Part shown: in pieces, positions 46,474 through 63,858 of the stretch
How positions within the stretch are numbered: the stretch's first letter is position 1
Layout: each line of letters starts with the position of its first letter
Assembly: GCA_003313425.1 (NCBI GenBank)
Contig: NHZP01000018.1
Coordinates: 1,013,044 to 1,077,043 of the forward strand
DNA from: Pseudopyrenochaeta lycopersici
Lineage: Eukaryota > Ascomycota > Dothideomycetes > Pleosporales > Pseudopyrenochaetaceae
Length of the DNA: 64,000 nucleotides
Reading direction: 5' to 3'
Notes under the pieces: model-generated
Databases searched by the model: none
Told to the model about the DNA's origin: nothing
Seen by the model: only the letters and a program-made list of their open reading frames with translations
Program-made: the position numbers and the translations under genes

Positions 46474-46491
46474 CCTTTCACTAGAAAGTTG
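46474..46491 (+). other. Left half of the unit-boundary hairpin, joined to telomere
   Basis: CCTTTCACTAGAAAGTTG follows the telomeric GGGTT directly. The left arm and TATATATGATT loop half are absent here and reappear only at the right end of the array (63823-63858). Confidence 0.85.
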
Positions 46492-46660
46492 TCAAGTGGT
46501 CGGGAGCCTTGTGCTCCTGGCTACGACGGCTTTACCGTTAAGCAGGGCACGCCTAGGGACTAGGCAGCGGAGCGTTAAACTACGAGTAGTTTAGGGCCTC
46601 TGCCCCCTGTAAGTAACACAACGCACGGGCAGTGCGGTCATCTGACCTTGTGTTGCACGT
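46492..46660 (+). other. Post-hairpin structured region (unit 1 example)
   Basis: Two stem-loops recur here in the units. Stem A: 17 nt at 46502-46518, arms around loop CTTGT; equivalents at 51244-51260 (GGCAGC/GCTGCC), 54371-54387 (AGGAGC/GCTCCT), 55952-55968 (ACCAGC/GCTGGT). Stem B: 18 nt at 46576-46593 (TAAACTAC/GTAGTTTA); equivalents at 48159-48176, 49729-49746, 51318-51335, 60772-60789. Arms change together between units, so base pairing is conserved rather than sequence. The region is upstream of the TATA box, so it probably acts in DNA (replication or packaging) rather than in the mRNA. Confidence 0.65.
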
Positions 46661-46703
46661 GGGAGACACACCTGGCCCCACCACCCTCTCAATCGGGTTT
46701 CTG

Positions 46704-46797
46704 ATTGGTCTATGGATGTAGACGCATGGAGTGGGCACCCTGTTGCGTACTATGTAGTAGTTTCTCTTGGCGGTGCACAAGGAAGAGATGTATATAA
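46704..46797 (+). promoter_or_regulatory. Unit 1 promoter: ATTGG + TCTATG palindrome + TATA
   Basis: ATTGG (reverse CCAAT) at 46704 overlaps the near-palindrome TCTATGGATGTAGA; TATATAA lies 87 bp further at 46791. The leader after it can form ACAGC/GCTGT. Confidence 0.65.
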
Positions 46798-46852
46798 CTA
46801 CAACAGCGTCTCTGCTGTTGGCACGGAGTGTGTTTTTTAAAACTTCATTGCG

Positions 46853-47629
46853 ATGGCATCGTATACCGGGCAGGGAACTAGCCTGGTCAAGGCTGTTGGT
46901 GATGGTGATTTACTGTCACTCGACCAGCTTCGGCCGGGTCAGAGGGGCTCCCCCTTCCCTGGGACAGCGGCAAACATTCAAGAGGTGCGGAGGCACATTC
47001 CTAGTAAGTATGTACTTCTTTCGTTAGGTTGGGCTTCCCCAACTAATAGAATAATAGAGCTGGTGGAGCAAGCTGTGTCCCTTACCTTCTGTATGGAATT
47101 GTCGGGAGAACAGTCTTGGTGGCTCACCAAAGAAAGCGGATGCCTTCCTATCCAATGCCTTTCTCATAAGCGCAGATTATGTCCGGAAGACTACAAGGAA
47201 CGTTATGCGCAGAGATTTATTCGACAGTCGCTCCTTGTGCTCAAGGTAGACGCACGCTTGTATGGGGTGGAGCGGAGCTTTGTTGCGTTTGCGGAGCTCT
47301 CAATAGAGGGACTTGATGTGCTTGTACAGCGCATTTTACCTCTTCTTATACTACCTGGAGGGCAGAGGGCGGAGGCTTCTGTTGTTGACGAAGTGCTTCA
47401 GTTGTTAGACAATGGATGGTATAGCACCAGCGTGGACTGCGCGTGTACGCTGCACAGGGCATGTGAGCCTTGTGGGTTTTTATCTTATAAATCTCAAAGG
47501 TTTGTTCGTCTAGACCGATTCCATTGTGTATGGCCTTTTGGAGAGTCCGTGTGGTTTGCTGGACGCAGCGATGCGGTAGGAGAAGTCCATCCCTTGCGGT
47601 GTGAGTGGCTTTCCTGTTCCAGTCTGTAG
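46853..47629 (+). CDS. Array family-A protein, unit 1 (spliced, 240 aa)
   Basis: First ATG after the TATA box. Proposed exons are 46853-47003 and 47058-47629, with an intron of 54 bp: GTAAGT donor, AACTAAT branch-like site, ATAG acceptor. This phase-1 position matches the other four family members; the intron is a multiple of three without a stop, so an unspliced 258-aa form is also possible. Conserved blocks: ELVEQ at the exon junction, SWWLTKESG, SLLVLKVD, FAELS..LDVLVQRILPLLIL, then a CxC-x5-CxxC cluster (CACTLHRACEPC), and SDAVGEV near the end. No database family is recognised and no HUH, Walker or jelly-roll motif is seen. Shared in five of eleven units, so it probably serves a dosage-varied or host-interaction role (inference). 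Confidence 0.75.
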   Translation: MASYTGQGTSLVKAVGDGDLLSLDQLRPGQRGSPFPGTAANIQEVRRHIPSKYVLLSLGWASPTNRIIELVEQAVSLTFCMELSGEQSWWLTKESGCLPIQCLSHKRRLCPEDYKERYAQRFIRQSLLVLKVDARLYGVERSFVAFAELSIEGLDVLVQRILPLLILPGGQRAEASVVDEVLQLLDNGWYSTSVDCACTLHRACEPCGFLSYKSQRFVRLDRFHCVWPFGESVWFAGRSDAVGEVHPLRCEWLSCSSL

Positions 47630-47867
47630 GTGGCATCATGTTTATCTAAGGTACGGAGTATACTATGGTATTGTTAACAATGGTGTGATCTTGTAATCCA
47701 CGTGTGTTTTTAGTAATCATAGGTGCAGGAATCCGCATCGGTGTGTAGTAGTAGTGTAGCGTCCTAGGTATGTTTGTTATACTAGCAGTGTAATTATTTT
47801 TATCTCTTCGAAAAGAGTATTAATGTAGTAATGGCAGGGCCCTTACAACAAATCAGAATTTGTGGTG

Positions 47868-48020
47868 CGCAGCTTGGTCAGTAAGGGTGTGGGAGCCCTC
47901 AGGATGGAACACCATCTCTCAGAAAAAAATAAAAAATTGGCTAAGTCCAATTTTGTTGTGGCTGGAGGCGATCCCAGGTCACATGGAGTGTGGCGCATGG
48001 AGGGGGCACGGGCCCCGACT
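47868..48020 (+). promoter_or_regulatory. Pre-hairpin conserved block with repeated TGTGGC motifs (unit 1 example)
   Basis: Contains AAGGGTGTGGGAGCCCT and GATGGAACACCATC short hairpins, an AAGTCC motif, and TGTGGC at 47957 and 47989, with a third copy inside the hairpin at 48032. Most units have two to four TGTGGC copies in this region before the hairpin. Such direct repeats beside a replication hairpin resemble Rep-binding iterons of circular ssDNA viruses; this role is inferred. Confidence 0.5.
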
Positions 48021-48074
48021 CAACTTTCTAGTGTGGCGTTTTGCCTATATATGATTCCTTTCACTAGAAAGTTG
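48021..48074 (+). other. Unit-boundary hairpin, candidate replication origin 1/2
   Basis: CAACTTTCTAGTG ... CACTAGAAAGTTG, a perfect 13-bp inverted repeat, enclosing a small GGCgttttGCC hairpin and TATATATGATTCCTTT. Unit 2 begins at CC (48057). Confidence 0.75.
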
Positions 48075-48288
48075 TCAAGTGGTCACCAGCCTTGCGCTGG
48101 AGACCCTCGACACTTTACCTGTAAGCAGAGCCTGTGAGTGGAGGGAACAACGGAGTGTTAAACTAGAATTAGTTTAGAGGCGCTGCACGCTTAAGTAACA
48201 CGCAGCACGGACCGTGTGAGTCAGATGACTGCAGGGTTACCCGTGGGAGGCACCCCTGCCCCCACAACACGGTCAGACTGAAGTTCTG

Positions 48289-48382
48289 ATTGGTCTATGG
48301 ACATAGATTCATGGAATGGGCACTCCGCTGCTCCCTAGGGACTAGGTGCTCTTGGCGTTGCGCAAGACAGAGATCTATATAG
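48289..48382 (+). promoter_or_regulatory. Unit 2 promoter: ATTGG + TCTATGGACATAGA + TATA
   Basis: Perfect TCTATG/CATAGA palindrome; ATTGG-to-TATA spacing is 87 bp, as in units 1, 5 and 6. Confidence 0.65.
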
Positions 48383-48492
48383 GAGGGGAGCCCGCTCACA
48401 GAGTACTGAGACGCAGGGAGTGCGTGTTTCGGAGACAGTTGTTGAAGGTTGTTTTACTTTGAAAACAGCATTTGTAGTACGCAGAGGGGCGG

Positions 48493-49091
48493 ATGGCTGG
48501 ACGGCACAGCACCAGCGTGGAATGCCTACGTTTACCCCGGGCAAGTTCGGGGGCGAGAGCGTGGCGACGGTTTGGCGAAGCACATCGAAGATTAACAACA
48601 ACGGAGTGTTTCTTGCTGCAAACTATACAGGCTGTATATCCAGTTAGTGGTAGCAACTCGTCCACGTCTGTGCTCGACACAACACGACTAGGTGTGTGGC
48701 GGTATGTATCACGTAGTGTCCTGCCAGTGGAGCGTGTGCTTATACAACAGTTTTTTTCAGAGGACGGATTCGTCTCTTGTTGTCGCATTTATCGATATGT
48801 GGTGCATATCTGGAGGATCATGAGAGAAGATGGTTGCATGCTCGTGTTAACGGCTTTAGGGATCGAGTTGCAGAGTTGGTAGGCAGCAGTAGTCTGTATG
48901 CGCAGTATACGGTTTCTTGGAGAGACCAGTTGGATTCTCTCGTGCAGGACGGAAGTCGGCGTTTACCACTCGGAGAGTTATCCCTAGATGCTGTATTGGC
49001 AAGGCAAAGAAACGCTGTTAGTCCGCAAGGGCGTAATTCTCGTGTGCACGATCTCGAAGAGGTAGAGAATGATTATAGTACTACACATTAG
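48493..49091 (+). CDS. Unit 2 orphan protein (spliced, about 179 aa)
   Basis: The first ATG after the TATA box opens a frame that must shift to reach a second long open frame. An intron at 48702-48760 (GTATGT donor, TTTTTTTCAG acceptor, 59 bp) joins them in correct phase (exons 48493-48701 and 48761-49091). The protein is rich in Arg in its first third (RASSGARAWRRFGEAHRR), then has a Leu-rich likely helical segment (LLLSHLSICGAYLEDHERRW) and a polar C-terminus ending EEVENDYSTTH. No known domain recognised. If unspliced, the first frame alone would give 129 aa. The splice sites are strong; the function is unknown. Confidence 0.6.
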
Positions 49092-49602
49092 ATCTTTTGT
49101 AGATCTTGTTATTTGCTATGGTGGTCGCGGACTGCGTTACGATCTGGGTGAGGCATGGTATGTGTTTTATGCTATGTGTTAGTATCTATTGTAGGAACAC
49201 GTACATTTGTTTAAGGTACGTATGTAACGTTCTATCGAGAGTAAGGTAAGTAATAACATTCCTTCTGCTAGGTATGTAGTTAGTATTAAGTATGCTTTAA
49301 CCATGTTACTAGGTTGCTTTATAGGATGTACATATCTATACATAATTATAGTTGTACGTTTAATTTTCCTGGAAATAAGTACTACTGTAGTAAAGGTAGG
49401 GTTATTGCGAAGAATAAAGAATTTGTATGGCAGAGCTTGGTTAGTAAGGGCTCCCACCCTTAGGATGGAATATCGAACATCCATTCTTCTCAAAAAAATG
49501 GCGAAGTCCAATTGTGTGTGGCTGGAAGACAGGCTGAGTCAGATGGGGGCTGTGGCGCGTTCTGCGCACAGACGGGTTGTGATGGGCACGGGCCCATTCT
49601 CT

Positions 49603-49645
49603 CAACTTTCGAGTGCTATATATGATTCCTTTCACTAGAAAGTTG
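49603..49645 (+). other. Unit-boundary hairpin, candidate origin 2/3
   Basis: Short form: CAACTTTCGAGTG directly followed by CTATATATGATT, without the small inner GGC/GCC hairpin, then CCTTTCACTAGAAAGTTG. Unit 3 begins at 49628. Confidence 0.7.
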
Positions 49646-49835
49646 TCAAGTGGTCGAGAGCCTTGCGCTCGGGACCACGACGGCTTTACTCTAAGCTTTG
49701 CCCGCGACTGGAGGGAGTACCGAAGGGTTAGGCTCCTTGGAGACTAGGGGCAAAAGCCCTGGTAAGTAACACGAAGCACGGACTGTGCGGGTCACTTGAC
49801 CTCAGTTTACCCACATTTATTCAATCAGAGTCCTG

Positions 49836-49931
49836 ATTGGTCTATGAACGTAGACAGCATGGAAGGGGCATGCCTCTGCCTACTAGGGACTAGTGTGTCT
49901 TGGCAAAGACAGGGTGGACATCGATATATAA
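49836..49931 (+). promoter_or_regulatory. Unit 3 promoter: ATTGG + TCTATGAACGTAGA + TATA
   Basis: Spacing 89 bp from ATTGG to TATATAA. Confidence 0.65.
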
Positions 49932-50089
49932 CCACAACAGCGTCTCTGCTGTTGGCACGGAGTGTGTTTTTATAGAATACTTCTTTTTGATTTAGGGTGG
50001 AGCCCGTTTTCTGTAGGGTTTTTTAAAGTTCCACCAAGCCGAAGGCTGGGGCTTAGGTTCTGTAGGTTTTTCTCGCGTGGAGCGCATTG

Positions 50090-50665
50090 ATGTTTGGGAA
50101 GCTTAGGCTGATCTTTTGTCCTGCAGTACTGCAGACTTTTGTCACGAGCCGCGCTTGTAGTAGTAGTCCGGGTTCGGACGCGATGGACTCAGATGCCATG
50201 GAATGGGAAGGTACGGATGGTACTGGCAACTCAGAAGGGGCTGTTAGGGGACCTGTTGCGGGAGATTCCGTGAAGCTCTCGAAACGTAGGAAGCGGGAGC
50301 GTCGTGGTCTTCGCACGAAGCCATCTTCGTTAGTGCACCAGCCGCCTTTTTTTAGAGAGGTTGTGCGGCGGGAGTCCTTTTCTAGAGCGTGGGAGCGCGA
50401 GGTTGTGGTGTGCCATTCTTGCACTTCCTTGTGTACGCGCGAGTCGTGTCAAGGTGCTCGTGTAGAGGAGCAGTGGGTAGTCAGCTATGTGCAGTTGTAT
50501 GATCGTTCAGGGGCAACGCGGGTGTTGCCTTCGAGTGGAGGGCGGCTTTTATGGAAGAGCGACTGTGGCGCGGAGTCGTGGTTTAATGACATGGGGGAGC
50601 GTGTTCCCTATTCGCAGTCTGGAGCTGCGTTGTTCCGTGTGAGAATGAGTGGAGCTATTGAGTAA
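50090..50665 (+). CDS. Unit 3 orphan: basic, Cys-cluster protein (191 aa)
   Basis: First ATG after the TATA box. The first ~55 residues include an acidic/Gly stretch (MDSDAMEWEGTDGTGNSEG), followed by a strongly basic KRRKRERRGLRTK typical of a nuclear localisation signal (about residues 65-77), and a cysteine cluster CHSCTSLCTRESC (about residues 111-123) that could bind zinc. The C-terminal third is Ser/Gly rich with aromatic residues. NLS plus zinc-binding cluster is a layout seen in small ssDNA-virus regulatory or silencing-suppressor proteins, but there is no recognisable homology, so that role is only a suggestion. Confidence 0.65.
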   Translation: MFGKLRLIFCPAVLQTFVTSRACSSSPGSDAMDSDAMEWEGTDGTGNSEGAVRGPVAGDSVKLSKRRKRERRGLRTKPSSLVHQPPFFREVVRRESFSRAWEREVVVCHSCTSLCTRESCQGARVEEQWVVSYVQLYDRSGATRVLPSSGGRLLWKSDCGAESWFNDMGERVPYSQSGAALFRVRMSGAIE

Positions 50666-51179
50666 ACCGGAGGATTATGGTTATTGGAAGTAACATATCC
50701 GTTACTCTCTTTATTTGTCTGCGTGGAGGCAGTGACTGTAAGGGAAATAGAAGGTTAGGTTTGTTGGGCTAGGCAAAGCGTTTCAGTTACTGTCTGCTAA
50801 TAAGGAGTTGTAGTTTTGTGGTATATGGAAATTTTGTACGGTGTATTCGGAGAAGCTATTTGGATGAATATGGTAAGTTTTCGTTATTTTTCGATAGGTA
50901 GGCATTGAGTTGATAAAGGTGTTGTTTTAACATAGAAGTAGTATCTAGGATACGACTGTTACGTTAATTTGATTTTTGTAATTGCTATACTTTTGTATGG
51001 TTGTGAGGAAAATCGGAGAGTTGTGGTGCGGAGCTCAGTCGGTAAGGGTGTGGGCGCCCTTGGGATGGAATACCGAAGATTAAACCTCTCGAAAATTGGC
51101 CAAGTCCGATTTCCCTGTGGCTGGAGGGCCATGCAGAGTCACATGGGTGTGGCGCGGATTTCGCGCACAGACCCGGACT

Positions 51180-51232
51180 CAACTTTTCTAGTGAGGCGCA
51201 GCCTATATATGATTCCTTTCACTAGAAAGTTG
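51180..51232 (+). other. Unit-boundary hairpin, candidate origin 3/4
   Basis: Left arm CAACTTTTCTAGTG, inner GGCgcaGCC, TATATATGATT | CC at 51214/51215, right arm CACTAGAAAGTTG. Confidence 0.75.
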
Positions 51233-51427
51233 AGCAAGTGGTCGGCAGCCTCGTGCTGCCAGCCCTTGCAACTTTACTCTTAAGCAGGGCCGGCGAGTGG
51301 AACGAGTAGCGAAGCGGTAGTCTTGAATAAGACTAGGGGCCATGCACTTAGTAAGCAAAGCAGAGCACGGACGTGGCGTGTCAGATGACGCTGCTGTGCC
51401 GCTCTGGTAGATCAGTTTTCTGATTTG

Positions 51428-51480
51428 ATTGGTCTATGGATATAGATGCATGGAGGTGCGGTTATGTGGGAACTATAAAG
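51428..51480 (+). promoter_or_regulatory. Unit 4 promoter: ATTGG + TCTATGGATATAGA + TATAAAG
   Basis: Spacing is only 46 bp here, against 87-91 bp in most units, so the promoter has lost or never had about 40 bp. Confidence 0.55.
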
Positions 51481-51713
51481 GGAGGTCCCTCCGCTCTCCT
51501 GGGTGGTTATCTTATAACTACCTTTTTCCTCTGTGGAGCTGTCCCCGCCATAGACGGAGTCGGCGCAATTTATGTTGTGGTTTCACGGACGTGGATATAC
51601 AGAGTACTCGCCCTAACCATCCAAAGGGGTGTCCTTTGTTGCGAAGCATTCTGTAAAGCGCAGTGTCGCGTTTGGGAATCGGCTGTTGGCCGTTTGGTTC
51701 TTCTTGGAAAGAG

Positions 51714-52355
51714 ATGGCGCGGGCGCGGCGAATAGTTGGTCGTTCGGTAGCGAAGCGCGCGAAGCAGGGCGCGAAGCCGCGTTCACCCTATGGGTCGGTT
51801 ATCACGTGCAGCGTGCCGAGGCGTAGAGTGGGTCAGGGAATGGCCTTTCAAGTCGTAGGCTTTGATCTGAACGGACGTGAGGGCGGAGGATTCAGTCGAT
51901 CCTGTGAGAGCGGGGCGATGGAAGCGTATAAGTTGGTTTTGACCTCGAGGGATGCACTCCAGGGAACTAGGAGTGGCATAGTTAAAGCGAATTCTACTGG
52001 TGGACGCACATCACGAGAGTGTTCCAGTGGCGGCGGTGTTGTCGAGGTCCCTCGTGTGGCGATGCCGGATACTACTGTCACGTCGAAGACTACTGGGACG
52101 CTGAACAGTCTTGGTGCGTCTGGTGCGCTTCGGCCGGCTGTCGGTCTTCTGGAATCTTTACAGGCACTGGTAGATGCCAGTGTTTACTTGGCGGAGTTTG
52201 AATTAGCGATTGGCCTTTTCAAGCTTGGTGCCTTTGAGTCTCGTAGTTCTACTTCGTGTAGGGCAGACACGGTAAGATCGATTATCCTGTTTCAATGTAG
52301 TGTATTTGCTAATTGCGATGCCTTTATTCTAGAGCAAGTAGTAAAGCAGGTGTAG
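51714..52355 (+). CDS. Unit 4 orphan: basic N-terminus, helical C-terminus (213 aa)
   Basis: The ATG at 51714 starts MARARRIVGRSVAKRAKQG, a basic N-terminus. A short upstream frame (ATG at 51572, 14 codons) precedes it, so leaky scanning or a leader intron would be needed. The middle is Gly/Ser/Thr rich and the last third is hydrophobic and probably helical (GLLESLQALVDASVYLAEFE), recalling the size and pattern of the unit 8 protein (LLQHLMASFEVV), though no clear alignment exists. DNA- or nucleoprotein-binding is suggested only by charge. No known family. Confidence 0.6.
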   Translation: MARARRIVGRSVAKRAKQGAKPRSPYGSVITCSVPRRRVGQGMAFQVVGFDLNGREGGGFSRSCESGAMEAYKLVLTSRDALQGTRSGIVKANSTGGRTSRECSSGGGVVEVPRVAMPDTTVTSKTTGTLNSLGASGALRPAVGLLESLQALVDASVYLAEFELAIGLFKLGAFESRSSTSCRADTVRSIILFQCSVFANCDAFILEQVVKQV

Positions 52356-52746
52356 TTTTTTGGTGTAACCGTTGTTGCTGCTAGTAAGTTGGCTTCACGG
52401 ATGTGTGCATGGGGTGCGCAGTTGGGTTCCTACTATTCAGGTCATTTTATGTAACGGATTGTATACTAGTATAGTAAGCATTCATGATTTATAATAGTAT
52501 GATGTGTACATTATTTTCTTCTGCTGTAAAGAAAAGCGGTTATTCGTTACTTTTCTTTTGAGTAGGAGTTGTGTATTTTATACGTAGTAAGTGTTATGTT
52601 GTGCGTCGCACGAAGAGGAATGGTTATTTGGCGGAGCTCGGTCAGGAAGGGTGTGGGCGCCCTTGGGATGGAACACCATCTCTCGAAAAAAAAAATGCTA
52701 AGTTCATTTTTGGGTGGCGGTGCGGGTCGCGCACAGGCCCCTCTGA

Positions 52747-52799
52747 CAACTTTTCTAGTGTGGCGCAGCCTATATATGATTCCTTTCACTAGAAAGTTG
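52747..52799 (+). other. Unit-boundary hairpin, candidate origin 4/5
   Basis: CAACTTTTCTAGTG / CACTAGAAAGTTG arms, inner GGCgcaGCC, boundary at 52781/52782. Confidence 0.75.
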
Positions 52800-52989
52800 T
52801 CAAGTGGTCGAGAGCCTTGCGCTCGGGACCACGACGGCTTTACTGTAAGCAGAGCCTGTGAGTGGAGCGAATAACGAAGTGTTAGACTACTTGTAGGCTA
52901 GGGCCTCTGCCCCCTGTAAGTAACACAACGCACGGGCAGTGCGGTCATCTGACCATGGGTTACCCACATTTTATTCAATCATCTATATG

Positions 52990-53083
52990 ATTGGTCTATG
53001 GATATAGAGGTAGGGAGTGTGCGTTTCTTCGCCCACTAGGGACTAGGTGCTCTTGGTAGTTACCAAGTTGTGAAGGTATATAA
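52990..53083 (+). promoter_or_regulatory. Unit 5 promoter: ATTGG + TCTATGGATATAGA + TATATAA
   Basis: Spacing 87 bp. The leader carries an AACAGAGGATCTGT hairpin shared with unit 10. Confidence 0.65.
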
Positions 53084-53161
53084 CAAGAACAGAGGATCTG
53101 TGTTTACGGAGTGTTGCTCTCCCCTAAGGGATTGAACGTTTTCTTATTGTTGTCATTTACG

Positions 53162-54016
53162 ATGGAATCGCAATTTGGAGAGGGTACGACTATCTCCGGT
53201 GTGAAGCGGTCCCATTCGCTGTCTTTGTTTAACTGGGATCAGTTACCGGTGACGTCCAAAGAGGGTAGTAAGGGGTACCCGTTTGCAGGAACAGAGAATC
53301 AGATGCAATCGGTGCGGAGTCACGTGCAAGGTAGGTGGACCTTACAGTGCTTGTTGGGCATCTCCCCAACTGACACCGTCATAGAGCTGGTGGAACAAGA
53401 TAGGTCGCTAACATGCCACGTCTTGCCGAATGGCAGACGACGTTGGTGGTGCACCAAGGAGAGCGGGAAGCCCCCGGATGAATGCATTTCCGGGAAGCAG
53501 TGCGATTGTTTGTTAGGATGCGGCGACATCTACATGGATGATCGGGTCAGGCAGTCCCTGTTGGTCCTTAAGGTGGATGTCCTTGCAGGCGATCAGGTGC
53601 GGAGTCTAGTTGTATTCGCGGAGCTCTCTGTAAAGGCACTGGATGTGCTCTTGCAGCGCATAGTACCTCTGCTCATACTACCGGGAGGTGGTGCTGTGGA
53701 ACCTTCAGTTGTGGAAACGTTGTTTCAGTCGTTAGACAATGGGTGCTTTTCTAGCACTCTTTGGTGTGGGTGTACACTTGCTGTGATTTGTCCACAGTGT
53801 AGGGCGATCCCCTCTCAGCAGTGGAGGTTTACGTGGCGGGATGGCTTTAGTGGGGTTGCTCCAGATGGAATTTCTGGTTGGTTTGTTGGGATCACCGATG
53901 CGGTAGGCATGGTACAGCCGTTCGGAGAAGACTGGCTAAGCTGCGGTACTGTGTTCCCCGAGATAGTATTGAGTAGTTCTGATTGCGGGTGCATGGAGTG
54001 TAGTCCGCATTCTTGA
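53162..54016 (+). CDS. Array family-A protein, unit 5 (spliced, 266 aa)
   Basis: ATG at 53162 starts MESQFGEGT, matching the starts of the unit 6 and 10 members. Proposed exons are 53162-53330 and 53385-54016, with a 54-bp intron (CAAG|GTAGGT donor, CCCAACTGAC branch-like site, GTCATAG acceptor), phase 1. As in unit 1, the intron is in frame, so retention gives a longer product. Conserved blocks: ELVEQDRSLTCHVL, RRWWCTKESGKPP, SLLVLKVDV, FAELSVKALDVLLQRIVPLLIL, the Cys cluster CGCTLAVICPQC, and SDAVGMVQP. It has a longer C-terminus than its paralogs, with extra cysteines (SSDCGCMECSPHS). Function unknown. Confidence 0.75.
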   Translation: MESQFGEGTTISGVKRSHSLSLFNWDQLPVTSKEGSKGYPFAGTENQMQSVRSHVQGRWTLQCLLGISPTDTVIELVEQDRSLTCHVLPNGRRRWWCTKESGKPPDECISGKQCDCLLGCGDIYMDDRVRQSLLVLKVDVLAGDQVRSLVVFAELSVKALDVLLQRIVPLLILPGGGAVEPSVVETLFQSLDNGCFSSTLWCGCTLAVICPQCRAIPSQQWRFTWRDGFSGVAPDGISGWFVGITDAVGMVQPFGEDWLSCGTVFPEIVLSSSDCGCMECSPHS

Positions 54017-54306
54017 TTGTTTGATTGAGTTTGGTAATTGAAGTGTTGTAATGGTAGGTTATGCGTGAGTCGTACTCTTTTAATATAGTTTAGTACAATT
54101 ATTATTTTTCTTGTCCTGCAAACATTGTTTATAGGAAAAATGATGCATTAGATTTTACTACAATGCTTGGTTCGTAAGGGTGTGGGTGCCCTTGGGATGG
54201 AACATCACTCTTCACAAAAAAATTGGCTAAGTCCGATTTCCCTGTGGCTGGAGGCCATGCAGAGTCACGCTGGGGGCTGTGGCTCGGGGGTGCACGGGCC
54301 TGCCCT

Positions 54307-56238: not shown

Positions 56239-56350
56239 AGAGGCGAGTGCCCTCCATCTCTTCTCACGGGTAGTGAGCGTATCTAAATCTACAGTTTCTC
56301 TGTAGTATTTTTCATATCCTTTCCTTAATTTCAACGGGTAGTTGATTGCG

Positions 56351-57036
56351 ATGGAGATGCAAGCCGGATCATGGTCCTGGACAAAGGGTAGCACGCCTAA
56401 GTCGGATTCAGATTTCTTATCTGATTGGTCTATGAAGATAGACCCAGGGACTGCGTTGAAGCTGGATAGCGAGGAGGTGTATACGTTGAAGGCGCAGTTG
56501 CACGGTGAGTGCTCTCTTATCTCTCTATATAAGTTGGGAGATCCCCAACTAATTTGGTCTTGTTCTCTGGGACAGAGTTTGTGAAGCAAGGCACATCAGT
56601 CTGGTGCGAGGCGGAGCCTTCTGGTACTGTCAAGTGGAACCTTGTAAAGGATCAACAGGTTCCTGGCCGCGGTGTATCCGACGAAGACGAGAAAGAGATT
56701 TCGCCAGAGTTTTTGCAACGTTATAGGCACTTTGAGGTTGTTAGTAAGGGCCGACCCTGTGCGAAGGGGTCGCACCTTGTCATCACGTATGCAGGCCACG
56801 GGCGTGGACGGACTGGGTTAGGGATGAGGGAGATTAGTATGTGTGTGCCGTTGACGGACGCAGCGTTTGATTTTCTGGTACAGAGTGTGCTACCGAACGT
56901 CTATAAAGTCGTCGAAGGTTCCAGGTTTAGCGTATTAGTGGTACTATTAGAGGGGTTTGGTGTCATGGATATAACATGCGAATGTGTCTTGAGACCTACT
57001 CGTTGTTTGTCTGATCAGGCGGCGCTGGAGACTTAG
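56351..57036 (+). CDS. Divergent family-A protein, unit 7 (spliced, 204 aa)
   Basis: ATG at 56351 (MEMQAGSW). Exons 56351-56504 and 56576-57036, intron 71 bp (GTGAGT donor, CCCAACTAAT branch-like site, GGGACAG acceptor), phase 1. Exon 1 has the same 154-bp length as in units 6 and 10, and the junction reads EFVKQGTSV where the others read ELVEQ..SL. Downstream it keeps the outline (VKWNLVKD for WWxTKES; FDFLVQSVLPNVY for LDVLLQRILPLLI; CECVLRPTRC for the Cys cluster) but lacks the last CxxC and the SDAVG end. Exon 1 includes a copy of the ATTGGTCTATG regulatory motif (56424-56442), read as DWSMKID. Function unknown. Confidence 0.7.
56424..56442 (+). promoter_or_regulatory. Intragenic copy of the ATTGG/TCTATG palindrome
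   Basis: ATTGG followed by TCTATGAAGATAGA, inside the unit 7 coding region, about 290 bp downstream of the regular copy. Preceded by CTG, as in the promoter copy. Confidence 0.5.
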
Positions 57037-57476
57037 ATGGAAGGGATTGTTCGTATGTAGGACAATTATTTTGCACGAAGTGTGTATGTTGTATACTGTA
57101 CGTTGGGCTGTGAGTGACAGGTTTTGTACTCTGTATACGTGAAGCGAGTATAGGTTGTTGCTAAGAATTAGCAGTAAAGATGATGATTTTCTCTCGTGTC
57201 TGTAGAGAGGGAACTAGGAATAGTTGTTGTAGCACACATGATATTTGTGTTGCAGTATGTTGCGGCTGTAGGAGCTCAGGGAGCGGGGTGTGTAAACAGA
57301 GTCAGTAGATTGAGATGTGGAACAACCAAAAACAAAAAACGGTAAGTCCAAGAAAAAAATCGCAAATTTTTTTGGCTATGTCCGATTGTGTGTGGCTGGA
57401 GGCGATGCTGAGTCACGGTTGCTCGAGAGAGCACGCGCTGGGGGTGTGGCGCGGATTTCGCGCACAGACCCTCCCT

Positions 57477-57530
57477 CAACTTTCTAGTGTGGCGAAAAGC
57501 CTATATATGATTCCTTTCACTAGAAAGTTG
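57477..57530 (+). other. Unit-boundary hairpin, candidate origin 7/8
   Basis: Perfect 13-bp arms, inner GGCgaaaaGCC, boundary 57512/57513. Confidence 0.75.
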
Positions 57531-57722
57531 TCAAGTGGTCGGGAGCCTTGTGCTCCTGGCTACGACGGCTTTACCGTTAAGCAGGGCACGCCTAGGGACT
57601 AGGCAGCGGAGCGTTAAACCACTTGGGGTTTAGGGGCGCTGCACTTAGTAAGCAAAGCAGAGCACGGACGTGGCGTGTCAGATGACGCTGCTTTGGCACG
57701 CTCTTCTTTTCAATCAGTACTG

Positions 57723-57820
57723 TGATTGGTCTATGAACGTAGACATAGGGAGTAGGCACGCCTCTGCCTCGTAGGGACTAGCATTCCTTGGCATTGCGCA
57801 AGGTATCGAGGAATATATAA
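57723..57820 (+). promoter_or_regulatory. Unit 8 promoter: ATTGG + TCTATGAACGTAGA + TATATAA
   Basis: Spacing 91 bp. Confidence 0.65.
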
Positions 57821-57943
57821 GATGGGAGGGCCTCCCACCCACGGAGGTGAGGTTGTTAGGGATCTAAACTTCTAATTACGATTTCCGTACAGGTACTATA
57901 GTCTACAGTGCGCGGATGCGGGCCTGTGAATGCTGGTTAGTGT

Positions 57944-58402
57944 ATGGAGGGAGTACACTCTATTCGTCGTGGTAGCACGACTTCGGGTAACAATGGTTCT
58001 CTGGTAGGACGTCGTCGTTTTTCGTCATGGGTGACGAGTTCTTTGTATGGGGGCCGGCGGAGCCGTTCCAGTCAGGTTTTTGCGGAGGCAGTTTTGGAAG
58101 AAGTGGATGCTTCGTCTTTGCATCACGCATGGGTATTGCGGGCACAGGAGGTAGCCATGGCGGTGTGCTACGTCAGACGGGCGGTGGACGTACTTCGTGA
58201 CACGCCTGAGGTGCTGTTACAGCATTTGATGGCATCTTTTGAGGTGGTCAACCACGCTATTACTCTATTGGTGGATCTCTTCCACGTAGAGGTGATCGAT
58301 TTGCAGGGCGCGACAGGCGAGCAAGCTGCGGAAGCGTTGGAGGACCTCGTCGGCAACATTGTACTTTGTGTTGGGGAACCGGCGTCAAGTGATTTGGTGT
58401 AA
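57944..58402 (+). CDS. Unit 8 orphan: small helical protein with basic N-terminus (152 aa)
   Basis: ATG at 57944 begins MEGVHSIRRGS; residues 1-45 are Arg/Ser/Gly rich (VGRRRFSSWV, GGRRSRSSQV). The rest is dominated by Ala/Val/Leu/Glu with regular hydrophobic spacing (AVLEEVDASSLHHAWVLRAQ, LLQHLMASFEVV, ITLLVDLFHVEV), strongly suggesting a helical bundle. Two short upstream frames (ATGs at 57916 and 57929) overlap the start; a CTAATTAC...CCGTACAG acceptor-like sequence just upstream (about 57870-57892) hints at a leader intron. No family recognised. Confidence 0.6.
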   Translation: MEGVHSIRRGSTTSGNNGSLVGRRRFSSWVTSSLYGGRRSRSSQVFAEAVLEEVDASSLHHAWVLRAQEVAMAVCYVRRAVDVLRDTPEVLLQHLMASFEVVNHAITLLVDLFHVEVIDLQGATGEQAAEALEDLVGNIVLCVGEPASSDLV

Positions 58403-59056
58403 GTGTTGTCATCTATTGGTTTCTAGGTCATGTATCTTCATGACCATGACATTCTTTCAGTAGTAGCCATGTTAACGTGAAGCGTGTTCATAGGATTATT
58501 GCAGATGGAGAGAAGATGGTGCTCCGTTGTGCTGTGTATACGGAGCCTGGTAAATTTCTCTTTGCGGAGCTTCCGGCGGATTAACCTATTAGGTGTATGT
58601 AAAACAGAGTTTTTTGTTATCGTCTGATAGATTGTAGAGGCAGTGGTCTCGGTTGTGGAGCTATTACTGTAGTTAATTGTTTGCTATAGGAAAGCTGCTG
58701 TGTTGTGAACGTAAGTTACTTGTTATTACCTTATTAATAAGGTAGAGATATGTTAGGGTAGTCTAATAATACGAATGTAGTTTTACATGTTATTTGTGGA
58801 GAGCGATGATTATTTGAAGTGTGAGGGGAGCATTATGAGTATACTTGTATGTCGATTTTTTGTATAGTAATGTTGTATGGAGAGTAACGTGTGGCAGCTC
58901 CATAGGACGAGAATTTTTTTGGAAAATTGAAAATTATTCTTCAAAAAAAAAAAGCGTAAGTCCATTTTGTTGTGGCTGGGGGCACACTAAGTCACGTTAG
59001 ATGCTGTGGCTCGGGAGAGTCACTTGTGGCGCAGATGGTGCGCACAGGCCAGGCCT

Positions 59057-59110
59057 CAACTTTCTAGTGTGGCGTTTTGCCTATATATGATTCCTTTCAC
59101 TAGAAAGTTG
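59057..59110 (+). other. Unit-boundary hairpin, candidate origin 8/9
   Basis: Perfect 13-bp arms, inner GGCgttttGCC, boundary 59092/59093. Confidence 0.75.
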
Positions 59111-59297
59111 TCAAGTGGTCAGGAGCCTTGCGCTCCTTACCCTTGTCACTTTACATGTAAGCAGGGCCGGCGAGTGGAACGAGTAGCGAAGCGGTAGACT
59201 ACTTGTAGGCTAGGGGCGCTGCACTTAGTAAGCAGAGCAGAGCACGGACGGTGCGGGTCAGATGACTATTGCTGTGCCTCACAAGATCTTTGATCTA

Positions 59298-59527
59298 ATT
59301 GGTCTATGTTCATAGACACGGGGAGTGGGCAGGATATGGCCGACTATGGAATAGTCCTGCTTGGCATTGGTTATCACTGGACGGTGATTGGATATGTCGT
59401 ATGTAGTGCGGCGTTTCGGAGATTGGTTTTCTCATCCTGGATAGGTTGGTGTGAAGCACGAATTGCGTACGTTGACGCAGTCGGGTTTGGCTGCGTCGGT
59501 TAATTCCTCAGAAGGGTGTATATAAAT
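59298..59527 (+). promoter_or_regulatory. Unit 9 promoter: ATTGG + TCTATGTTCATAGA ... TATATAAAT
   Basis: Perfect TCTATG/CATAGA palindrome with a changed centre (TT). The TATA box lies about 220 bp further, so about 130 bp appear to be inserted compared with other units. Confidence 0.55.
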
Positions 59528-59615
59528 GGGGTCCCCGTAGTGTCGGGGTGCAGTGACTGCCTTTTAATGCTATTTAACCCTTCTTATTTTTTTCCTTGTT
59601 ATCAGCGTGGTTGCG

Positions 59616-60248
59616 ATGCCAACTGGAAAGGAGTATTCTGCGCGGAGGCGGTGCGAAGTTCGACTTCGGTCTGCGGTAATACGCTATACGCTTGTTCCCG
59701 GAGGGAAGATGTTAAGTGTGGAGGACTTCAGCAAAGCCTTTCATCGCTACTTGATGAACCCCACGATGAGTGGTCAACGTAGTGCCGATGCGTGGATAGC
59801 AAGGCCTGTTTTGTCTAGTCGAAGCGAGGCCGCGGATGGCGATTTATTCGACGTGTTTGATGTACTCGTCGTCTTTCCTGCGCAGATCCGGGTAGGGTCT
59901 TGTTCGCGTAGGTTTACCTTTGCGCCGCGTGTCTGGAAGGCGGCCGTTGTTGTCAAGGCAGCACAAAGTCGCAATATGTGCGTATTTGCGGTGTCGATAC
60001 TTTGCCAGTGGAGCGACGCTTGTGAGGACCAGGTGTCGTTGGGATGTTTCGGCATTGGGTTTGACAGAACCGGCTTGGAGCTCGATACGGAGTCGTTTGC
60101 TGTTTGTCGTCAGTTAACGCTGTTCGGGTATGCCGAACTTTTGGATGGAACGATCTCAGACCCAGCTGCCCTTAGGCCGTATGTTGTACGTCCGGATTTT
60201 GAGCCGATTATGGAGTATTGCGTTCCCGTTTGCCTACGGACCGGTTAG
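59616..60248 (+). CDS. Unit 9 orphan protein (210 aa)
   Basis: ATG at 59616 (MPTGKEYSARRRCEVRLRSA): a basic N-terminus, then mixed alpha/beta composition with VEDFSKAFHRYLMNP (about residues 35-49) and several cysteines (ILCQWSDAC, FAVCRQL, EYCVPVC). An upstream ATG within a pyrimidine-rich leader starts an overlapping frame. A likely leader intron (donor near 59537, TTTAACC branch-like site, TTATCAG acceptor ending 59605) would remove it and make 59616 the first ATG. No HUH, Walker or jelly-roll signature visible. No family recognised. Confidence 0.65.
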   Translation: MPTGKEYSARRRCEVRLRSAVIRYTLVPGGKMLSVEDFSKAFHRYLMNPTMSGQRSADAWIARPVLSSRSEAADGDLFDVFDVLVVFPAQIRVGSCSRRFTFAPRVWKAAVVVKAAQSRNMCVFAVSILCQWSDACEDQVSLGCFGIGFDRTGLELDTESFAVCRQLTLFGYAELLDGTISDPAALRPYVVRPDFEPIMEYCVPVCLRTG

Positions 60249-60644
60249 AAGTCTGGTCAAGAACTTTGTGTTGTGGCGATATGGTGACCTTGTTGTTACA
60301 TCACTTCAAGGTGTACGGCTTTTATGTTGGGTACACGGAGTTGTGTGGTATGGAGTATTTTATGGGGATATTGGTGTTTCCCTAACTAAGGTACGTTTTT
60401 GGCAAGTGTTTTGCGCATGTTGGCTAACATGAGGGCGTTAGCGTTTATTGATGACATTGGTCGTATGAGGCATGTGTGGCATTGTTGGAGTATTTGTACG
60501 CTAAACGTCAGTTTTGTGTTAAAAAAAAATTGCTAAGTCCAATTCCTGTGTGGCTGGAAGACAGGCTGAGTCAGGATGCTGTGGCTCGGGAGAGTCACGT
60601 TGGGATGCTGTGGCGCTATTTTTGCGCGCACGGGCCCATTCTCT

Positions 60645-60687
60645 CAACTTTCGAGTGCTATATATGATTCCTTTCACTAGAAAGTTG
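60645..60687 (+). other. Unit-boundary hairpin, candidate origin 9/10
   Basis: Short form: CAACTTTCGAGTG followed at once by CTATATATGATT, no inner hairpin; boundary 60669/60670. Confidence 0.7.
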
Positions 60688-60899
60688 TCAAGTGGTCAGG
60701 AGCCTTGCGCTCCTTGACCCCTGACACTTTACCTTAAGGTTTGCCCACGACTGGAGGGAGTAGCGAAGTGTTAGTCTCTTTAGAGGCTAGAGGCAAAGAC
60801 CCTTGTAAGCCTACAAAAGCACGGACGGTGCGGGTCATCTGACTGTTGTGGGCACGTGGGAGGCACCCTTGCCCCCACACCATCTAAATCTATGATTTG

Positions 60900-60996
60900 A
60901 TTGGTCTATGAACATAGACACAGGGAGTGAGCTTTTGGTTACTTACTAGGGACTAGGTGGTCTTGGCAAAGACAGGATGGATATCACGGTATATAA
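60900..60996 (+). promoter_or_regulatory. Unit 10 promoter: ATTGG + TCTATGAACATAGA + TATATAA
   Basis: Spacing 90 bp. Confidence 0.65.
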
Positions 60997-61069
60997 CAAC
61001 AGAGGATCTGTGTTCATGGACATGTGGCATGGCCTCGAAGGGATTCTTTTCTTTTTGTATCACCCTGCG

Positions 61070-61869
61070 ATGGAGTCGCAAACCGGGCAGGGCACTGGCT
61101 ATGCGGAGGCAGACATGACAAGTGTCCTTCCATTACGAATAGATGGGTTGCAGGAAGGAAGCCCTTCCGCATTGTCCGTAGGGACAGAAGCAGAGTTTAA
61201 CGTAGTGAGGGATCACGTGTCCTGTAGGTGTCTCTTTCTGTTTACGTAGACACGGAAGAAGTTGGGCCCTTCCCAACTAACCTCATCACAGTGCTGGTAG
61301 AGCATCATGTGTCTCTCACGCTCACCATAAATGCGTCGGGAAGACAAGCTTGGTGGTTCACCAAAGAGAGCGGACGCCTTCCTATCCAATGTGTAAAGGA
61401 GGAACACACGTTTTGTCTGAGAGAGTACGGTCAGTTCATTGCCGATGGTGGGACTCGGCAGTCGCTCCTGGTCCTCAAGGTGGAGGCGGTCCGTCGGGAT
61501 GGTGAACTGTGGAGCCTTGTTTCATTTGCGCAGCTTTCGGTAGAGACACTGGATGTTCTCTTGCAGCGGATCCTACCCCTTCTAATACTGCCGCCGGGGC
61601 AGATGGTAGAGGCCTTTACGGCGTCTATGTTGTTGTATTCCTTACAGGATGGATGGTATAATACGCGGGTGGACTGCGCATGTACTCTCAACTGGATATG
61701 TGAGCCTTGTGTGTATGCACATGGTGTTTCATCAAGGTTTGTTCGAGTAGATGAATTTTCCGGGGTACGGCCATGTAGAGAGTCGCCTTGGTTCGCTGGA
61801 ATCAGTGACGCTGTGGGAGCAGTACTACCGTCTGGCAGGAACTGGTTGAGTTGCACTCGTTCTTGGTAA
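61070..61869 (+). CDS. Array family-A protein, unit 10 (spliced, 243 aa)
   Basis: ATG at 61070 (MESQTGQGT). Splicing is required: the first frame ends in the intron. Exons 61224-flanking: 61070-61223 (154 bp) and 61292-61869; intron 68 bp (GTAGGT donor, CCCAACTAAC branch site, ATCACAG acceptor), phase 1. Conserved blocks: LLVEHHVSLTLTI, AWWFTKESGRLP, SLLVLKVEAV, FAQLSVETLDVLLQRILPLLIL, the Cys cluster CACTLNWICEPC, SDAVGAVLPSGRNWLSC. Closest by eye to the unit 6 protein in exon 1 and to unit 1 in exon 2, another hint of recombination among units. Function unknown. Confidence 0.75.
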
Positions 61870-62226
61870 GGTGGTTACCTGTAGGTTCCTCTTCTTGTCT
61901 CTATGTATATGGCGTATACGAAAGTAATAGTGTGTATACTATGAGGATATATTATACATTATGTATCAGGTTCATTTAGTACATTATTGTAAGTGTATTT
62001 ATTTTTTTCACATATAGTTGCTAAGATGGTAATGGCAGGGCTCTTCTGGAAACGAAGAAGTTGTGGTGCGCAGCTTGGTCAGTAAGGGTGGGAGCCCTTC
62101 AGATGGAAATTCGTAAAAAATTGGCTAAGTCCACAGGAACTGTGGCTGGAGGGGCACGCCGAGTCAGGTTGGCTGTGGCTCGGGGAGCGCAGACATGGGT
62201 CGTTTTTGGGCACGGGCCCCCTCCGA

Positions 62227-62269
62227 CAACTTTCGAGTGCTATATATGATTCCTTTCACTAGAAAGTTG
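62227..62269 (+). other. Unit-boundary hairpin, candidate origin 10/11
   Basis: Short form with CAACTTTCGAGTG arm and no inner hairpin; boundary 62251/62252. Confidence 0.7.
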
Positions 62270-62501
62270 TCAAGTGGTCACCAGCCTTGCGCTGGTTACC
62301 CTTGCCACTTTACACGTAAGCAGGGCCTGTGAGTGGAGCGAACAACGAAGTGTTAAACCACCTGGGGTTTAGGGCCATTGCCCCCTGTAAGCGCTAGCCT
62401 TTTTGTCACGTGGAGGCGGGAACACATGGAGTGGGCAGTGTGCCTCTTTCTACGGAGTAGTGTATCTTGGCAAAGATTACTCTGTGTCCTACATGGGTGG
62501 A

Positions 62502-62510
62502 TATATAAAG
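62502..62510 (+). promoter_or_regulatory. Unit 11 TATA box
   Basis: TATATAAAG, 50 bp before the ATG of the capsid-like gene. The only unit promoter without the upstream ATTGG/TCTATG element. Confidence 0.65.
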
Positions 62511-62560
62511 GGGTCCTTCCCCCCGCCTCTTCTGTCTGGACAGACAGCTTGTGGAGCAAT

Positions 62561-63622
62561 ATGGGTTACACTACATCACGTAAGTATGGGTATGGCCGGA
62601 AGGGGCGCTATTCAGGCTATTCGGCCAAAGCGAAGCCTGGTTCTTCGGGACGGAGTACGAGGAAGTACAGTAAGGCCTTTCGACCGAAGGTGCGGAGGTC
62701 TGGCGTTAGCACAGCGCGGCTTGCTCGTATGGAGCGGAAGCTCCAAGAAATGGAGCAAGGGCAGAAGCAGACGGTTGTTCTGACGGGGTACCCTGCGCGG
62801 CCTTTTTACGTCGCACCGACGAGCACTGAGCAGTATCAGCAGCGTTATTTTGCGGTGCCAGTGTCTATGGGGATCCCACCGCAAGGCCCAATGTTGGCAG
62901 CGCCTTACTTGTCGGACAAGTACCGTAAACGCCGAGAAGTGGTTGTGACAGGTGTCACGCTCAATCTGAAGGTCGCATATTCCTTTGGGTTCGAGCTCAG
63001 CGCGGTGCTGTGTCGCAGTTACCCAGGTCATCTCGCCGGTGTTGAATCCGGGGTGGATAGAGTCCCGAGTGACTTTCTCATTGGCTGCAAAGAGCAGGAC
63101 CAACAACGTCTTTACCGTCTTGACGAGACTGGGCTTGATACCCCGGACGGCCCCTACGAAGTGAATACGAAGCGGGAGAGCGTGGATATGGAGGGGAAGG
63201 TTGTCTTTAGTCACTCCCTTAACTCTCCTGATGGGACCATTTTTAAGTGCTCCACGAAGAAGGGTACTAGTGGGCCTATTGGTACTGTGGACTACAGTAT
63301 TGGCGAGAGGGGTGAACCTGGGTATGTTAAGTCTAAGGGGTGTACGACTGTAAATATCAGTGTACCCCAGCCCGCGTTCGGTGCGCACTCTTCGACGGGT
63401 GCGACATCTTGTGTCCAGAGGATTAAAGCTCATTGGACTCTCAACGAAGCGTTAAAGTTTGAGATTGAGGAGGATAATCGTCCCGTTGATAACAATCACT
63501 TCCAGTTGTGGGTTATGGTAACACCTACTTCTGTTGTAAACGACGATGGTACTGGTAAAGGGCAGATCTGGGTTGGAGGTGTATTGGAAGCTGTTGTTGC
63601 GAAGGTGTATTACCGTGTCTGA
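62561..63622 (+). CDS. Capsid-like protein, unit 11 (353 aa)
   Basis: First ATG after the TATA box. Residues 1-55 are rich in Gly, Tyr, Ser, Arg and Lys (MGYTTSRKYGYGRKGRYSGY, RSTRKYSKAFRPKVRRS), the basic DNA-binding and nuclear-import arm typical of coat proteins of circular ssDNA viruses. A short helical RLARMERKLQEMEQ follows, then about 270 residues alternating beta-like hydrophobic strands and loops (VVVTGVTLNLKVAYSFGFEL, FQLWVMVTPTSVV), consistent with a single jelly roll. Length fits the family range. No Rep or enzyme motif is present. The capsid call rests on composition, layout and context, not on recognised homology. Confidence 0.6.
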   Translation: MGYTTSRKYGYGRKGRYSGYSAKAKPGSSGRSTRKYSKAFRPKVRRSGVSTARLARMERKLQEMEQGQKQTVVLTGYPARPFYVAPTSTEQYQQRYFAVPVSMGIPPQGPMLAAPYLSDKYRKRREVVVTGVTLNLKVAYSFGFELSAVLCRSYPGHLAGVESGVDRVPSDFLIGCKEQDQQRLYRLDETGLDTPDGPYEVNTKRESVDMEGKVVFSHSLNSPDGTIFKCSTKKGTSGPIGTVDYSIGERGEPGYVKSKGCTTVNISVPQPAFGAHSSTGATSCVQRIKAHWTLNEALKFEIEEDNRPVDNNHFQLWVMVTPTSVVNDDGTGKGQIWVGGVLEAVVAKVYYRV

Positions 63623-63822
63623 ATCAGGTTGTGTTTTACTTAGTTAGTATAGTTTTTTATGTTTTGGGATAGACGGAGTTAGGATTGGTATAGAATATAC
63701 ATTGTGTTGGAAAATCATTTTAAATTTTTGGAAAAAAAATTGCGTAAGTCCAATTCATGTGTGGCTGGAGGGCACGTTGGGTCACCTGGGGGTGTGGCGC
63801 GGAGAGCGCACAGGCCAGAAAT

Positions 63823-63858
63823 CAACTTTCTAGTGTGGCGTTCCGCCTATATATGATT
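63823..63858 (+). other. Right half of the unit-boundary hairpin, joined to the terminal telomere
   Basis: CAACTTTCTAGTG, inner GGCgttccGCC and TATATATGATT, after which AGGGTT repeats begin at 63859 instead of CCTTTCACTAG. Confidence 0.85.

What the first reader, a model, noticed from the sequence alone, without database searches (positions are those of the whole stretch)
46474..63858. Eleven-component, one-gene-per-unit array with the build of a multipartite ssDNA virus
Seen: eleven same-orientation units, each 1,561-1,607 bp, each bounded by the same hairpin position, each with a common region, its own TATA box and one main gene, including a capsid-like gene. Known: nanoviruses (Nanoviridae) use six to eight ~1-kb circles of near-equal size with a common stem-loop, and a tripartite ssDNA virus is known from Fusarium. 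Inference: this is an integrated multipartite mycovirus, or a satellite set, with more components than I know for any ssDNA virus. The length uniformity across unrelated genes is what a packaging limit would produce.
Basis: partly seen in the sequence, partly recalled or inferred. Interest (0 to 1): 0.97.

Follow-up and report, generated by a model that had tools for sequence, protein, structure and literature searches.

The report
Many-piece virus arrays capping fungal telomeres
This fungal chromosome end carries a row of equal-sized one-gene DNA units that belong to a large set of virus-like minicircles, which seem to have been stitched onto chromosome ends exactly where the virus's own replication enzyme would cut, a plan for which I found no description.

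Summary
In detail: eleven same-sense units of 1,561-1,607 bp, all cut at one point of one hairpin. They are a sample of something larger. The assembly holds 893 exact copies of the hairpin arm. I read 120 complete units (mean 1,579 bp, SD 10.6): 69 types, Chao1 about 113. One type, outside the window, encodes an intact geminivirus/genomovirus-like Rep; another is a Rep-like protein without helicase; unit 11 is capsid-like. Forty-four of 69 types carry one diversified gene family. Arrays sit at telomeres. All 41 telomere-to-unit joints found end TT|CC, none found was inverted, and ten of ten telomere tracts inside fetched arrays are multiples of six bases. Best reading: a CRESS-DNA element with tens to about a hundred one-gene components, whose nick-site ends were joined to each other and to telomere 3' ends and re-extended by telomerase. 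Joining by Rep is inferred; free circles, virions and the capsid's identity are unproven. Nearest described: ssDNA mycoviruses with three or four segments.

The parts
46455..46473 (+). telomere stub of 17 nt (GGG + 2 repeats + TT) to which unit 1 is joined
46474..48056 (+). unit 1 (type T4): accessory-family gene 46853-47629, probable intron near 47004-47057
   Evidence: intron read by eye
48057..49627 (+). unit 2 (T24): orphan gene, ORF 48493-48882
49628..51214 (+). unit 3 (T13): orphan gene, ORF 50090-50665
51215..52781 (+). unit 4 (T30): orphan gene with basic N-terminus, ORF 51714-52355
52782..54342 (+). unit 5 (T62): accessory-family gene 53162-54016
54343..55923 (+). unit 6 (T63): accessory-family gene, main exon about 54918-55493
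55924..57512 (+). unit 7 (T1): divergent accessory-family gene, main exon about 56569-57036
57513..59092 (+). unit 8 (T64): orphan gene, ORF 57944-58402
59093..60669 (+). unit 9 (T19): gene 59616-60248, small family with T8 and T67
60670..62251 (+). unit 10 (T65): accessory-family gene, main exon about 61294-61869
62252..63858 (+). unit 11 (T14): capsid-like gene 62561-63622; promoter block with GGCGGGAA shared with the Rep unit
48021..48074 (+). example of the origin hairpin at a unit boundary; putative nick GATT^CC at 48056/48057 (nick inferred from joints)
63859..64000 (+). terminal telomere (TTAGGG)n starting directly at the unit's nick-site end

Best explanation
The array is chromosomally stored DNA of a CRESS-DNA (circular, Rep-encoding ssDNA) virus-like element of an ascomycete-like fungus. 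Its genome is spread over tens to roughly a hundred circles of about 1.58 kb, mostly with one virion-sense gene each, all sharing one origin hairpin. SHOWN in the part read: 64-69 unit types with one origin and nearly one length; one type with a full Rep, one with a helicase-less Rep-like protein, one capsid-like; heterotypic arrays in near-random order; array edges and internal telomere tracts cut at the same origin position; telomere joints in one register and one polarity. INFERRED: Rep nicks TATATATGATT^CCTTT and stays on the 5'-CC end. It transfers that end to a 3'-OH ending in TT: GATT-OH of another unit, which builds arrays, or GGGTT-OH of the telomere strand, which anchors them. The free GATT-OH end is a telomerase primer, so AGGGTT repeats follow; after one to five repeats another unit may join, or a full telomere forms. 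Chromosome ends act as a store of components that could be copied out again from the hairpins. The expanded accessory family probably serves host interaction; its function is unknown.
For: Equal-length one-gene units with a common hairpin. Rep with HUH and helicase motifs (motif names recalled), 14 homologues; the profile of the 12 aligned Reps finds geminivirus Rep endonuclease structures at E 4e-5. Rep, 9 full identical copies; capsid-like gene, 8. 41 of 41 telomere-to-unit joints found end TT|CC; 0 inverted; internal tracts all multiples of six, 10 of 10. Random order, 2 homotypic neighbours against 2.1 shuffled, and capsid-unit copies with different neighbours show joining of single units. 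Accessory family conserved in protein sequence, dN/dS below 1 in all 494 pairs scored. No RIP in the array against strong RIP beside it.
Against: No reads, so neither circles nor virions are shown. Rep scores below Pfam's curated cut-offs (19.8 and 19.2 bits against 24 and 27.8), although homologues P0006, P0013 and P0014 pass theirs. The capsid-like protein has no sequence relative and no usable model (pLDDT 35.6). Stubs under arrays (8-22 nt) are much shorter than terminal telomeres (71-149 nt), which plain joining to full telomeres does not predict. Some ordered neighbour pairs recur (4 against 0.7), so part of the arrays is copied between ends. Only 120 of at least 893 units were read. Contig ends hold indel errors. 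TT microhomology allows host repair instead of Rep.
Confidence: 0.72

Rival explanations
1. Same element, but host repair does the joining: Rep only opens circles at the origin, and end-joining or break-induced replication fuses the ends to eroded telomeres through the shared TT.
For: GATT, GGGTT and the joint share TT, so microhomology could fix the register. Stubs are short, as after telomere loss. Recurring pairs show copying between ends. Two contig ends (C65, C89) end in a capsid unit cut off inside the gene and followed by telomere, i.e. healed away from the nick site.
Against: A 2-bp homology rarely gives 41 of 41 identical, same-polarity joints with no resected unit among those found (that search would miss unit starts trimmed into the arm). 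Unit-to-unit joints are equally exact.
Confidence: 0.25
2. A domesticated element: the fungus keeps the arrays as chromosome-end caps or as a bank of variable subtelomeric genes, and there are no longer virions.
For: 11 of 13 listed telomere-tipped contig ends carry arrays. The accessory family is large and variable.
Against: Two telomeres do without arrays within the 3 kb read. Rep and capsid-like frames are intact in identical copies, and unit length is held within SD 10.6 bp whatever the gene, which fits circles or packaging better than a chromosomal gene bank.
Confidence: 0.15
3. Not integrated: virus concatemers in the sample or assembler joins gave array contigs and false telomere joints.
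For: Some contigs look array-like over most of their length (hairpins from 1,068 to 296,015 on C61 of 301,352 bases). Indel errors and two likely chimeric units lie near contig ends.
Against: Nine fetched array edges run into chromosomal subtelomere on several different contigs, all at the same base, and C17 supplies the matching empty end of C4. Rolling-circle concatemers would be of one type, but neighbours are heterotypic.
Confidence: 0.07
4. An ordinary transposon or tandem subtelomeric gene family.
For: Subtelomeric place, tandem repeats, one multigene family.
Against: Units with unrelated genes share only the origin regions. Rep is short, with geminivirus-type domains. Pfam showed no reverse transcriptase or transposase in the window proteins scanned.
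Confidence: 0.03

Closest known systems
Botrytis cinerea ssDNA virus 1 (tetrasegmented mycovirus; PMC10731770: outline, passages, section 17 and part 1 of section 18 seen)
   Same: Ascomycete host; equal segments (about 1.7 kb); common regions of about 260 and 38 nt; Rep and capsid on separate segments; nick written TACTCTT^CA, also TT^C
   Different: Four segments; Rep in negative sense with a putative intron; the term 'integrat' does not occur in the text. Here 64-69 types read, all main genes in the sense of the nicked strand, telomeric arrays
Fusarium graminearum gemytripvirus 1 (tripartite; seen in listings, abstracts and the discussion of PMC10731770)
   Same: Multipartite ssDNA mycovirus with Rep, capsid and an extra component
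   Different: Three segments; no telomeric arrays mentioned in what I saw
Nanoviridae (PMC5680193, passages seen; Rep and F-box details recalled)
   Same: One gene per near-equal circle, common stem-loop, all genes in one sense; one F-box-like hit recalls the nanovirus Clink protein (recalled, below cut-off)
   Different: Six to eight segments; plant hosts; about 1 kb (recalled); other Rep type
BdDV-1, endogenous DNA virus of Batrachochytrium (PMC11115238, passages only; details recalled)
   Same: Rep-encoding ssDNA-type virus integrated in a fungal genome
   Different: Single small genome (recalled), not a many-component set
Telomeric retroelements (HeT-A/TART of Drosophila, MoTeR of Magnaporthe; listing and recall only)
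   Same: Repeated addition to chromosome ends in one polarity
   Different: Reverse transcription; here a Rep element alternating with telomerase-type repeats

Membership tests
CRESS-DNA viruses (Cressdnaviricota) | Rep with HUH endonuclease motifs I-III and helicase motifs (Walker A/B, motif C) | tested here: met
   VTWSQ, HYH, YCFK, GPSRLGKT, HLVLND, VTCN in one 392-aa frame (motif names recalled); profile matches geminivirus Rep structures at E 4e-5; single sequence below Pfam cut-offs
CRESS-DNA viruses (Cressdnaviricota) | Origin in a stem-loop with a nick site | tested here: met
   13-bp hairpin; cut position inferred from joints, not from biochemistry
CRESS-DNA viruses (Cressdnaviricota) | Single jelly-roll capsid protein | tested here: inconclusive
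   Basic N-terminus; model pLDDT 35.6; top BFVD matches are capsids but none at E 0.001
CRESS-DNA viruses (Cressdnaviricota) | Circular ssDNA in virions | not testable with these tools
   No reads or material
Genomoviridae, including tri- and tetrapartite mycoviruses | Rep belongs to the genomovirus clade | not tested
   Geminivirus/genomovirus-like domains; no reference Reps at hand for a tree
Genomoviridae, including tri- and tetrapartite mycoviruses | Rep transcribed opposite to the virion sense | tested here: not met
   Rep lies in the same sense as the capsid-like and other genes, on the strand carrying GATT|CC; assumes that strand is the virion strand
Nanoviridae | Six to eight components of about 1 kb, one gene each in one sense | tested here: not met
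   One gene and one sense hold (no family hit on the minus strand), but 64-69 types of 1.58 kb
Nanoviridae | Nanovirus-type Rep (Viral_Rep domain) | tested here: not met
   Pfam scan of Rep gives geminivirus-type domains and not Viral_Rep at E 1; genome-wide search empty but its control did not ring
Telomere-maintaining mobile elements | Elements added to chromosome ends in one polarity | tested here: met
   41 joints, one polarity
Telomere-maintaining mobile elements | Needed for host telomere function | not testable with these tools
   Two of 13 listed telomere-tipped ends lack arrays in the 3 kb read

The most novel reading that the evidence does not exclude
A rolling-circle virus uses its own Rep to ligate its many one-gene components onto telomere 3' ends, in alternation with telomerase, so that chromosome ends serve as the archive of a genome of about a hundred parts: a new mode of integration, a new genome plan and a new way to extend telomeres.
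Probability: 0.5. Interest if true: 0.97.

Novelty: new variant of a known kind. Interest (0 to 1): 0.93.

Why it matters
How a genome in many separate pieces persists is an open problem of multipartite viruses. The review I saw in passages segments an extreme case and describes theory that limits the number (PMC5680193). A set about ten times larger, with stored copies of its pieces on host chromosome ends, would suggest an answer: the archive removes the need for every piece to meet again at each infection. It would also be a site-specific route by which a Rep writes DNA into telomeres, testable with one protein and two oligonucleotides. And end contigs of long-read fungal assemblies may hold more such sets.

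Tried and rejected
Capsid proof: the PDB by sequence, 5.8 billion proteins, Pfam, PHROGs and NCBIfam gave no match above noise. The AlphaFold2 model without an alignment is poor, so its fold matches are only a hint: of the 50 matches shown, 27 bear names, 16 of those are called capsid or coat, 3 of the 16 from RNA viruses; none reaches E 0.001.

Accessory family: one distant homologue, on a 42-kb JGI contig; the model from five sequences is useless (pLDDT 32.4). F-box: of four candidates one matches at E 7.3e-4, below the cut-off; three do not match. Viral_Rep in the genome: nothing, but no control rang. IMG/VR: no relative of Rep in four protein scans and no hairpin in one pattern scan (40). 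Rfam: nothing in 44001-64000. The intron count (38 of 44) used a loose pattern without a control.

Reading the arrays as a closed set of eleven was dropped. An ordinary gene family was rejected because unrelated genes share only the origin regions.

Host: not named. At least 150 Zn2Cys6 domains (150 of 398 candidates scored; the 14 control genomes showed none), TTAGGG telomeres and RIP-like flanks point to a filamentous ascomycete.

Print: searches listed no paper on telomeric CRESS arrays; the library lacks most subscription journals and preprints. Apart from the three papers named, I saw listings and abstract openings only.
Full report
Observation. The window is the right end of contig C18 of a 62.7-Mb, 188-contig assembly. 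From 46474 to 63858 lie eleven units of 1,561-1,607 bp, each starting CCTTTCACTAGAAAGTT and ending TATATATGATT. The arms at a boundary fold into a 13-bp stem (-11.8 kcal/mol, z -6.5; two other boundaries z -3.6 and -6.1). The first unit follows GGGTTAGGGTTAGGGTT directly and the last is followed directly by a TTAGGG telomere.

Scale. The hairpin arm occurs 893 times in the assembly and 0 times for the reversed control; at 1,579 bp each this would be about 1.4 Mb. It was seen on 26 contigs in capped listings. I read 120 complete units, about one in seven: 1,536-1,609 bp, mean 1,579, SD 10.6. A first 107 gave 64, 65 or 66 types at 85, 95 or 99% identity; the 120 gave 69, 39 seen once and 16 twice, Chao1 113. 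Two of the 69 (T60, T61, near the end of contig C61 and the longest and shortest units) look like exchanges between two others and may be assembly errors. Chao1 assumes random sampling, which copying between ends would breach. Copy numbers agree with it: 8 full capsid-like copies and 9 full Rep copies, near 893/113.

What the units encode. One type (C23:1005355; locus L017:5645-6823) encodes a 392-aa Rep with the CRESS motifs (motif names recalled). Pfam gives Gemini_AL1_M 8.7e-4 and REP_ORF2-G2P 1.5e-3, both below curated cut-offs; homologues P0006, P0013 and P0014 pass them, and the 12-sequence profile finds geminivirus Rep structures at E 4e-5. Fourteen homologues include Pyrenophora tritici-repentis (52%, on a 1,600-bp contig, one unit long), P. 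seminiperda (57% over 78%) and Colletotrichum sojae (40%, 1,422-bp contig). Besides the 9 full copies there are broken copies on C99 and C166. A second type (L029:1592-3188; three places) has only the endonuclease half (REP_ORF2-G2P 1.4e-4, below cut-off; E 3.4e-35 to Rep). Unit 11 encodes a 353-aa protein with 20 K+R against 3 D+E in its first 75 residues; its poor model finds a circular-virus capsid first in BFVD, nothing at E 0.001. Rep, the capsid-like unit and one accessory unit share a promoter block with GGCGGGAA at nt 162-163 (3 of 69 types in that orientation, 4 of 69 in either). Forty-four of 69 types carry one gene family, with no hit on the other strand. Among 38 usable members median amino-acid identity is 41%; of 703 pairs, 494 have a usable dS and all of these have dN/dS below 1 (median 0.34; for the 12 closest pairs 0.43; pairs are not independent). 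Intron-like GT..CTAAC/CTGAC..AG precedes the main exon in 38 of 44 (no control). The other types are orphans or tiny families.

Telomere joints. All 41 telomere-to-unit joints found, with a gap of 0-5 bases allowed, end TT|CC; 40 read TTAGGGTT|CC and one TTAGGGGTT|CC. With the telomere's C strand leading and 0-8 bases allowed there are none. Thirteen unit-to-telomere joints GATT|AGGG were found, only that register being searched. In fetched sequence 10 of 10 internal telomere tracts are 6-30 nt and multiples of six, nine array edges sit on stubs of 8-22 nt, and seven terminal tracts measure 71-149 nt, some perhaps cut by contig ends. Of 13 telomere-tipped contig ends (listing capped at 100 places), 11 carry arrays; C17 and C95 show none in the 3 kb read. 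C17 ends in the same subtelomere sequence as C4, which carries an array, so it serves as an empty site. Two ends, C65 and C89, stop inside a capsid unit and continue as telomere, i.e. healed away from the nick site.

How the arrays were built. Type order is near random: 2 homotypic neighbours against 2.1 shuffled, and 104 distinct pairs among 108; but recurring ordered pairs number 4 against 0.7, so some stretches were copied between ends. The eight capsid-unit copies share no neighbour in the flanks compared; three of their flanks match none of the 69 types. So single units, not concatemers of one circle, were joined. Same-type copies are identical in 59 of 80 pairs; the nine distinct differing comparisons show 0-2 substitutions plus small indels, except T1, with 19 substitutions, all in the first 350 nt. 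Exact blocks of 60 nt or more are shared by 150 of 2,346 type pairs, 117 in the 5' common region: origin regions move between components.

Age. The flanking 46 kb has strong RIP-type indices (TA/AT 1.56-2.06; (CA+TG)/(AC+GT) 0.10-0.72), the array none (1.12; 1.03). No RIP-decayed Rep copy was found at E 1. The arrays are recent or escape RIP.

Mechanism. Shown in the part read: origin-exact ends, fixed register and polarity, alternation with telomerase-type repeats. Inferred: Rep holds the 5'-CC end and transfers it to a TT-3'-OH. The last reaction of rolling-circle replication is this transfer, to GATT-OH (recalled for HUH Reps); GGGTT-OH of a telomere resembles that acceptor, and GATT-OH in turn can prime telomerase. 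Short stubs are not explained by joining to full telomeres; eroded ends, or cutting near the telomere base, would fit. TT microhomology keeps host repair as a rival.

Comparison. The nearest described systems are the four-segment Botrytis virus (PMC10731770) and the three-segment Fusarium virus. Nanoviruses share the plan of one gene per equal circle but have 6-8 components (PMC5680193, passages) and another Rep type. By membership it is a CRESS element; Genomoviridae fails on the sense of Rep and was not tested by a tree. In working it resembles nanoviruses in plan and telomeric retroelements in place.

Verdict. Open: free circles, virions, capsid proof, accessory function, host name.

Noticed in passing
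window 1-46470: Subtelomere with strong RIP-type indices next to an array without them.
   Followed up: partly
window 44001-46473: Purine-rich, AT-rich repeat field (GC skew 0.63 in 44001-46000) just inside the array; related repeats stand before the telomere on C4, C17 and C23.
   Followed up: no
window 34527-34889: OrsD-like C2H2 fragment, Pfam PF12013 at 4.4e-4, below cut-off.
   Followed up: no
window 7883-8299 (minus strand): Small ORF with a signal-peptide-like start, no Pfam match.
   Followed up: no
L034 (end of C89) and C65:291085-291171: Two contig ends stop inside the capsid-like gene and go on as telomere: array ends healed away from the nick site.
   Followed up: partly
C61:1085-4230 (L026): T60 and T61 look like a reciprocal swap of common regions between T12 and T63; recombination or an assembly chimera.
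   Followed up: partly
P0003, P0006, P0007, P0009, P0011, P0013, P0014: Seven Rep relatives whose longest contig is only 1.2-1.6 kb, hinting at other fungal elements with Rep alone on one small circle.
   Followed up: no
array edges on nine contig ends: Stubs beneath arrays (8-22 nt) are far shorter than terminal telomeres (71-149 nt); unexplained.
   Followed up: partly
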